Assembly: GCA_025454795.1 (NCBI GenBank)
Contig: JALONT010000013.1
Span: forward strand, 1 to 64,000
Source of the DNA: Bacteroidales bacterium
GTDB taxonomy: Bacteria; Bacteroidota; Bacteroidia; Bacteroidales; VadinHA17
Length of the DNA stretch: 64,000 nt
Direction: 5' to 3'
The translations under genes and the position numbers were made by a program. A model generated the notes under the pieces. It ran no database searches. It saw nothing but the letters and a program-made list of their open reading frames with translations, and had not been told where the DNA came from. Shown piece after piece: positions 18,742-18,873 of this stretch; within the stretch, counting starts at the first letter, position 1; every line of letters starts with the position of its first letter.

Positions 18742-18873
18742 TCAGATTCTGATAATCGGAGGTGTTGGTAATACAATCGGTTCACCACCGCCACGTACAT
18801 TTATCATCTCTTCATTTGAAAGAGTAAATTCGGCAAAAATGTCATTTGTTTTTTCGAAATTCAGGGTTTTCAT
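18742..18873 (-). CDS. 43-aa GG-leader peptide precursor (RiPP/bacteriocin-like); core about GEPIVLPTPPIIRI
   Basis: Translated by hand from the reverse strand: MKTLNFEKTNDIFAEFTLSNEEMINVRGGGEPIVLPTPPIIRI*; A/G-rich AAAAAAGAAAATT just before ATG; LSxEEMxxVRGGG leader end; nearby C39 exporter. Confidence 0.82.
   Translation of the reverse strand: MKTLNFEKTNDIFAEFTLSNEEMINVRGGGEPIVLPTPPIIRI

What the first reader, a model, noticed from the sequence alone, without database searches (positions are those of the whole stretch)
18742..18873. Hidden 43-aa double-glycine peptide with a proline-rich core, missing from the ORF track
Reverse-strand reading gives MKTLNFEKTNDIFAEFTLSNEEMINVRGGGEPIVLPTPPIIRI*. 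The LSxEEMxxVRGGG end resembles the leader of Bacteroidetes GG-type natural product precursors. Cleavage after GG or GGG would release a 13-14 residue peptide with three prolines after the acidic start and hydrophobic flanks. There is no Cys, so this is not a disulfide bacteriocin, and no radical-SAM or lanthipeptide enzyme is in the window, so it may be unmodified.
Basis: partly seen in the sequence, partly recalled or inferred. Interest (0 to 1): 0.82.

Follow-up and report, generated by a model that had tools for sequence, protein, structure and literature searches.

The report
Secreted peptide of a protease–sigma circuit
A tiny unannotated gene encodes a 43-residue precursor that is almost certainly cut and exported as a 14-residue proline-rich peptide, and in related Bacteroidales it travels with a caspase/separase-like protease, a membrane anti-sigma-like protein and a sigma factor, suggesting an undescribed way for a bacterium to sense its own secreted peptide.

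Summary
The ORF is real. MKTLNFEKTNDIFAEFTLSNEEMINVRGG|GEPIVLPTPPIIRI has homologs (E<=1e-3) in 48 of 62 same-genus genomes, under purifying selection (pN/pS 0.2-0.6), in fixed synteny. It heads a peptide–TPR–kinase operon beside a TPR-CHAT protease, an ECF sigma factor and the genome's only C39 peptidase/ABC exporter plus HlyD. An ECF-type promoter (TGTCACAAA-N12-GACATGTA) lies 76-96 nt upstream in 37 of 37 loci; its consensus matches once in the 3.3-Mb genome (18933-18961). The TPR protein is a single-pass membrane protein that looks like the sigma factor's anti-sigma partner: the genes are adjacent in relatives and fused in one. Arg127, between its membrane helix and TPR domain, is invariant in 116 of 116 homologs, a candidate cleavage site for the CHAT protease. 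A second module in the same genome (sigma2–TPR2, peptide2–CHAT2) has a similar core (DADGGDPIIIIPPRK) but no exporter. Best explanation: an unmodified secreted signal peptide read by a CHAT/anti-sigma/sigma circuit. Precursor, exporter and promoter are well supported by sequence; sensing and proteolysis are inferred. No description of this combination was found in the papers searched. New variant of a known kind.

The parts
18742..18873 (-). Peptide precursor gene (43 aa). Leader = residues 1-29 (18787-18873), ending VRGG; predicted mature core = residues 30-43, GEPIVLPTPPIIRI (18745-18786).
   Evidence: exact ORF, conserved family, purifying selection, GG invariant.
18933..18961 (-). ECF-type promoter of the peptide operon, TGTCACAAAACACACAAAAATGATACGTA, 88 nt upstream of the ATG.
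   Evidence: Equivalent element in 37/37 loci 76-96 nt before the ATG; single genome-wide consensus match.
17779..18528 (-). TPR protein, 249 aa: cytosolic helical domain 1-71, TM helix 87-103, periplasmic TPR 129-246; candidate transmembrane anti-sigma factor. Arg127 codon at 18148-18150.
   Evidence: Model; TM in 46/47 homologs by hydropathy; sigma-TPR adjacency and one fusion; Arg127 invariant 116/116.
16922..17758 (-). Histidine kinase (HisKA/HATPase_c), 278 aa, no TM segment; accessory, missing in some relatives.
19105..22200 (+). TPR-CHAT protease, 1031 aa, N-terminal signal/TM segment and C-terminal TM helix; His857/His861 and Cys908 invariant.
22173..22790 (-). ECF-type sigma-70 factor, 205 aa.
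   Evidence: TIGR02937 at 49.6 bits, above cut-off; conserved position.
22892..25078 (+). C39 peptidase/ABC exporter (PCAT), 728 aa; catalytic Cys14, His88, Asp104.
   Evidence: Pfam PF03412, PF00664, PF00005; only C39 domain in the genome; triad conserved; like PCAT1 and ComA.
25088..26377 (+). HlyD-family periplasmic adaptor, 429 aa.
   Evidence: Pfam PF13437; conserved next to PCAT.

Best explanation
The gene encodes a GG-leader precursor that the nearby C39 ABC exporter cuts after Gly29 and, with HlyD, secretes as the unmodified 14-mer GEPIVLPTPPIIRI. The peptide is the signal of a closed regulatory circuit: the membrane-anchored periplasmic TPR-CHAT protease and/or the periplasmic TPR domain of the anti-sigma-like protein bind it; this triggers (or restrains) CHAT cleavage of the anti-sigma-like protein at Arg127 just outside the membrane; the ECF sigma factor is freed and transcribes the peptide–TPR–kinase operon from its dedicated promoter, giving a feedback loop that reports peptide level (cell density or export/envelope status). 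Shown by sequence: precursor, selection, synteny, sole exporter, intact catalytic residues, unique promoter, paralogous second module. Inferred: sigma/anti-sigma pairing (strong indirect evidence), that this sigma reads this promoter, peptide sensing, CHAT cleavage at Arg127, and the sign of the feedback.
For: Conserved peptide in fixed synteny. Only C39 domain in the genome, triad conserved. Peptide and exporter co-occur in 65 non-redundant loci: 53 both, 6 neither, 6 one only (Fisher p=7e-5; 7e-6 after adding two peptides the regex missed). In G320 peptide, PCAT and HlyD are contiguous on one strand. ECF-type promoter in 37/37 loci, one consensus match in the genome. Sigma and TPR genes overlap or are adjacent on one strand in distant relatives and all 22 module-2 loci, and are fused in one 449-aa ORF. 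TPR topology fits a transmembrane anti-sigma factor. Arg127 with a small next residue is invariant in 116/116 homologs in a low-confidence linker. The CHAT fold resembles separase and Craspase TPR-CHAT, and in Craspase a TPR-CHAT protease cleaves a sigma inhibitor (PMC10028731). In module 2 a similar proline/acidic core precedes CHAT2.
Against: No experiment. Sensing of the peptide by CHAT or TPR is not shown. G025 keeps promoter, TPR, CHAT, sigma and exporter but has lost peptide 1, though it keeps peptide 2. The sigma–TPR–CHAT unit also occurs without a detected peptide in distant relatives (L115, L245), so the peptide is not essential to every such circuit. Arg127 could be structural. The sigma-TPR fusion is a single MAG. 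Cores do not diversify as pheromone types often do.
Confidence: 0.5

Rival explanations
1. The peptide is a proline-rich antimicrobial (an unmodified bacteriocin-like peptide) and the CHAT/sigma/TPR genes only regulate its production or protect the producer.
For: C39 exporters classically secrete bacteriocins; GG-leader bacteriocins occur in Bacteroidetes (bacteroidetocins, PMC6671954); weak NCBIfam hit to a class IIb model (15.3 bits, below cut-off).
Against: The 14-mer has one basic and one acidic residue and no Cys, unlike cationic or disulfide antimicrobials; cores of relatives are often acidic; no immunity gene in the cassette; core and leader equally constrained with no diversification; peptide 2 pairs with the second sigma/CHAT unit without its own exporter.
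Confidence: 0.2
2. The peptide is an internal gauge of export or envelope state: what is read is its build-up in the cell or periplasm when export fails, acting on CHAT or the TPR protein of the same cell, with no cell-to-cell signal.
For: The peptide operon also encodes the anti-sigma-like protein; in G011, G035 and G015 the same promoter type precedes a second hlyD–C39 exporter operon, as expected if the sigma responds to export load.
Against: The exporter gene in the window has no such promoter; conserved cleavage motif and core suggest a released product with its own function.
Confidence: 0.17
3. The peptide is a substrate-like inhibitor of the CHAT protease rather than an activating signal, protecting the envelope from it.
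For: Peptide 2 lies 90-173 nt upstream of CHAT2 on the same strand; peptide 1 is divergent from CHAT1.
Against: No structural or kinetic evidence; cores have no conserved Arg (mostly Lys or Ile near the end).
Confidence: 0.1
4. Chance ORF or regulatory leader without a secreted product.
For: Very short; not annotated.
Against: Purifying selection at the amino-acid level, invariant GG, co-occurrence with the C39 exporter.
Confidence: 0.02

Closest known systems
GG-leader peptides exported by C39 ABC transporters (PCAT1 cargo, ComC/ComA pheromones, class II bacteriocins)
   Same: LSxEEMxxVRGG-type leader, C39-ABC exporter plus HlyD, short core.
   Different: Core is a Cys-free 14-mer rich in Pro and Ile/Val; its neighbours are a sigma factor, an anti-sigma-like TPR protein and a CHAT protease, not a receptor-kinase/response-regulator pair or an immunity gene.
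Bacteroidetocins (PMC6671954)
   Same: GG-leader peptide and C39 exporter in Bacteroidetes.
   Different: Bacteroidetocins have Cys residues and mostly a thiol oxidoreductase gene; no Cys here, no such gene, and a sigma/CHAT unit instead.
Craspase Csx29/Csx30/CASP-sigma (PMC10028731)
   Same: TPR-CHAT protease with an ECF-type sigma factor and its inhibitor; similar CHAT fold.
   Different: No CRISPR part; protease and inhibitor are membrane-anchored, with envelope-side TPR domains, and the candidate input is a secreted peptide.
Transmembrane anti-sigma factors released by proteolysis (RseA type; TPR-bearing DdvA, PDB 8rot)
   Same: Single-pass protein with a cytosolic helical domain and a periplasmic sensor domain; linked to an ECF sigma gene.
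   Different: The candidate protease is CHAT, not DegS; sensor is a small TPR domain; a dedicated secreted peptide is encoded in the operon.
Caspase/EACC2 systems with ECF sigma and TPR protein (PMC8195603)
   Same: Predicted caspase-superfamily peptidase, ECF sigma and TPR protein in one neighbourhood.
   Different: No EACC2 or TRADD-N domain reported here; adds a GG peptide and its exporter.

Membership tests
C39-exported GG-leader peptides | GG at the leader end with conserved hydrophobic/acidic residues before it | tested here: met
   G28, G29, E22 invariant in 33; L18, E21, M23, R27 at least 90%.
C39-exported GG-leader peptides | Linked C39 exporter with intact catalytic triad | tested here: met
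C39-exported GG-leader peptides | Actual cleavage after GG | not testable with these tools
   Needs purified C39 domain.
TIGR04149 rSAM-modified RiPP | Score above the curated cut-off | tested here: not met
   11.5 bits against 25; relatives at most 19.3.
TIGR04149 rSAM-modified RiPP | Linked radical-SAM maturase | tested here: not met
   Only QueE-type radical SAM, in the flank.
Bacteroidetocin / class IIa-like | At least two Cys in the core | tested here: not met
   0 Cys in 31 of 31 genus cores.
ECF sigma factor | sigma70-ECF model above cut-off | tested here: met
   TIGR02937 49.6 bits against 42.9.
Transmembrane anti-sigma factor (TPR protein) | Single TM with cytosolic helical domain and periplasmic sensor | tested here: met
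   (prediction).
Transmembrane anti-sigma factor (TPR protein) | Genetic coupling with a sigma factor | tested here: met
   Adjacent or overlapping same-strand genes in relatives and module 2; one fusion.
Transmembrane anti-sigma factor (TPR protein) | Binds and inhibits the sigma factor | not testable with these tools
   Needs pull-down or reporter assay.
CHAT protease | CHAT domain above cut-off with catalytic His/Cys | tested here: met
   191.5 bits against 24; H857/H861 and C908 invariant.
Craspase (type III-E CRISPR) | Cas7-11/CRISPR partner | tested here: not met
   No such gene among the neighbours; no defence-model hit.

The most novel reading that the evidence does not exclude
A peptide-sensing mode not described in the literature searched: a secreted proline-rich GG peptide controls a separase-like TPR-CHAT protease in the bacterial envelope, which cuts a transmembrane anti-sigma factor at one invariant arginine to release a sigma factor dedicated mainly to the peptide's own operon; one exporter serves two such circuits in the same cell.
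Probability: 0.33. Interest if true: 0.9.

Novelty: new variant of a known kind. Interest (0 to 1): 0.72.

Why it matters
Few peptide-signalling systems are characterised in the Bacteroidota, and bacterial CHAT proteases outside CRISPR mostly lack known substrates (own knowledge). This locus offers both at once: a defined 14-mer ligand candidate, a defined promoter for a reporter, and a single-residue cleavage-site prediction (Arg127). It also shows how secreted peptides are missed: the gene has 43 codons, scores below the family-model cut-offs, and shows up only through conservation.

Tried and rejected
Chance ORF: rejected. TIGR04149, lantibiotic, class IIb and bacteriocin-signal models: all below cut-off. 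Anti-phage defence models: no hit. The single-protein genome-contig scan found nothing; the alignment-based scan worked. The promoter search with 3 mismatches gives near-background numbers (59 against 47 in controls), so no wider regulon is claimed in this genome. CHAT genes on contigs C40 and C78 have no sigma, TPR partner or clear peptide nearby and are not part of the system. The peptide-absence call for L110/L111 was a regex miss; peptides are there. PDB sequence searches with CHAT and TPR gave only generic TPR hits; the structure search was informative for CHAT and weak for TPR. Profile searches of the order and phylum found sparse hits (21 of 395 and 3 of 300 genomes): the peptide family is mostly confined to this and related Bacteroidales families.

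Full report
OBSERVATION. The reverse-strand ORF at 18742-18873 reads exactly as reported. Its ATG lies 88 nt downstream of a promoter-like element, and it is followed on the same strand by a TPR gene and a histidine-kinase gene.

IS IT A GENE? A whole-genome search found homologs at E<=1e-3 in 48 of 62 same-genus genomes and in 5 other-genus genomes of the family; a protein search found 35 homologs. They lie upstream of the same TPR gene. Sixteen closely related pairs give pN/pS 0.20-0.61, and pooled values are 0.36 for leader and for core. In a 33-member alignment M1, E22, G28, G29 and P39 are invariant. The residue after GG varies (G, D, E, N, A), so the third Gly of the window copy belongs to the core and the expected product is GEPIVLPTPPIIRI. 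None of 31 genus cores contains Cys. Named relatives are uncultured Bacteroidales MAGs, many from fens and lake sediments.

THE CASSETTE. The order is constant in the genus: kinase < TPR < peptide | CHAT > < sigma, C39-ABC exporter > HlyD >, with conserved flanking genes on both sides. The exporter holds the only C39 domain in the genome; Cys14, His88 and Asp104 are kept in 60, 60 and 59 of 60 homologs. Across 65 non-redundant loci with enough flank, peptide and exporter are both present in 53 and both absent in 6, with 3 and 3 discordant; two of the 'absent' calls were regex misses. Fisher p is 7e-5, or 7e-6 corrected. In one order-level relative peptide, exporter and HlyD are contiguous on one strand (L259). 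The kinase is dispensable (not detected in L076, L083, L089). No modification enzyme is part of the cassette; the nearest radical-SAM protein is QueE-type, in the flank.

THE PROMOTER. Aligning the regions upstream of the peptide shows TGTCACAAA-N12-GACATGTA, 76-96 nt before the ATG in 37 of 37 loci. In the window genome the consensus matches once, at 18933-18961; no site has one mismatch, three have two, and three-mismatch numbers are near background. Of the 53 same-genus relatives in the multi-genome search most have exactly one site, and the 36 order-level genomes none. A few same-genus genomes have further sites: in G011 and G035 about 80-90 nt upstream of a second hlyD–C39 exporter operon, in G015 about 200 nt upstream with one mismatch. 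That the neighbouring sigma factor reads this promoter is inferred from promoter type, conservation and linkage.

THE SIGMA PARTNER. The TPR protein has a cytosolic helical domain, one TM helix and a periplasmic TPR domain (predictions). In distant relatives the sigma gene lies next to or overlaps it on the same strand (L113, L115), and in one MAG the two form one 449-aa ORF (L114). In the second module of this genus sigma2 and TPR2 are adjacent on one strand in all 22 loci. This is strong indirect evidence for a sigma/anti-sigma pair. Aligning 116 close and divergent copies shows Arg127 invariant and usually followed by a small residue, in an otherwise variable, low-confidence linker between membrane and TPR domain.

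THE PROTEASE. The CHAT protein has an N-terminal signal/TM segment, TPRs, a CHAT domain with invariant His/Cys, and a C-terminal TM helix. Its model (pLDDT 83) has separases and the Craspase TPR-CHAT subunit among its best PDB matches. Craspase cleaves an inhibitor of a sigma factor (PMC10028731). Separase and other clan CD proteases often cut after Arg (own knowledge), so Arg127 is a natural candidate site. This step is a hypothesis.

SECOND MODULE. Contig C48 of the same genome carries peptide 2 (MKKVIESAKPGKNEEDLFSRFSEKEILSLQAMSCIRGG|DADGGDPIIIIPPRK), CHAT2, TPR2, sigma2 and a kinase, with no exporter. Equivalent loci were seen in 21 further same-genus genomes; in 14 of these 22 loci a peptide of the same type lies 90-173 nt upstream of CHAT2, and 7 of the other 8 are cut by a contig end before that point. 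The single exporter probably serves both peptides. This may explain why G025, which lost peptide 1, keeps its exporter: it still has peptide 2 (L270).

MECHANISM AND RIVALS. Best reading: precursor > C39 cleavage and export > mature 14-mer sensed in the envelope by CHAT and/or the TPR domain > cleavage (or protection) of the anti-sigma-like protein at Arg127 > sigma release > transcription of the peptide operon. Precursor, exporter pairing and promoter are well supported by sequence; sensing and proteolysis are inferred. Rivals are an antimicrobial role, an internal export/envelope gauge and a CHAT inhibitor.

COMPARISON. It works like a GG-leader peptide system on the export side and like regulated anti-sigma proteolysis or Craspase on the response side. 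It is not TIGR04149 (below cut-off, no maturase), not a bacteroidetocin (no Cys) and not Craspase (no Cas7-11). Caspase-superfamily neighbourhoods with an ECF sigma and a TPR protein have been predicted elsewhere (PMC8195603). Literature searches found no description of a CHAT–sigma–GG-peptide unit, within an open-access library only.

Noticed in passing
Own genome contig C48 (L253): peptide 2 1248-1409 (+), CHAT2 1510-4329 (+), TPR2 4293-5324 (-), sigma2 5373-5978 (-), kinase 6169-7464 (+): Second paralogous peptide–CHAT–TPR–sigma–kinase module without its own exporter; core DADGGDPIIIIPPRK.
   Followed up: yes
L154, L157, L163 (G011, G035, G015): The peptide-type ECF promoter also lies upstream of a second hlyD–C39 exporter operon; in L154 and L163 a small HTH protein containing a GG motif follows the exporter gene.
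   Followed up: partly
L114:3143-4489: Sigma factor and TPR protein in one 449-aa reading frame (natural fusion, or a sequencing error in one MAG).
   Followed up: partly
L222, L229, L244, L247, L249 (Bacteroidales sediment MAGs): Related loci with one to three GG peptides whose cores carry DEDILLPDP-like motifs; in L222, L244, L247 and L249 a different ECF-like element (TGTCAC followed by a T-run and, in most, TTATG[TC]ACCTC) precedes the first peptide.
   Followed up: partly
L257, L258 (G109): A genome with several divergent CHAT/sigma-like/TPR units and peptides with polyproline cores (ILPPPPPPPPDPDPNHGG).
   Followed up: partly
L158, L160 (G045, G028): Sites matching the promoter with a shared spacer lie about 90 nt upstream of a MASTxETGHAKNVANF protein gene, possibly a mobile or repeated element.
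   Followed up: no
window 14277-14906 and 14701-16845: QueE-type radical-SAM gene whose 3' end is overlapped in another frame by the open frame of a TPR/PD40/OmpA protein gene; this flank is conserved beside the cassette across the genus.
   Followed up: partly
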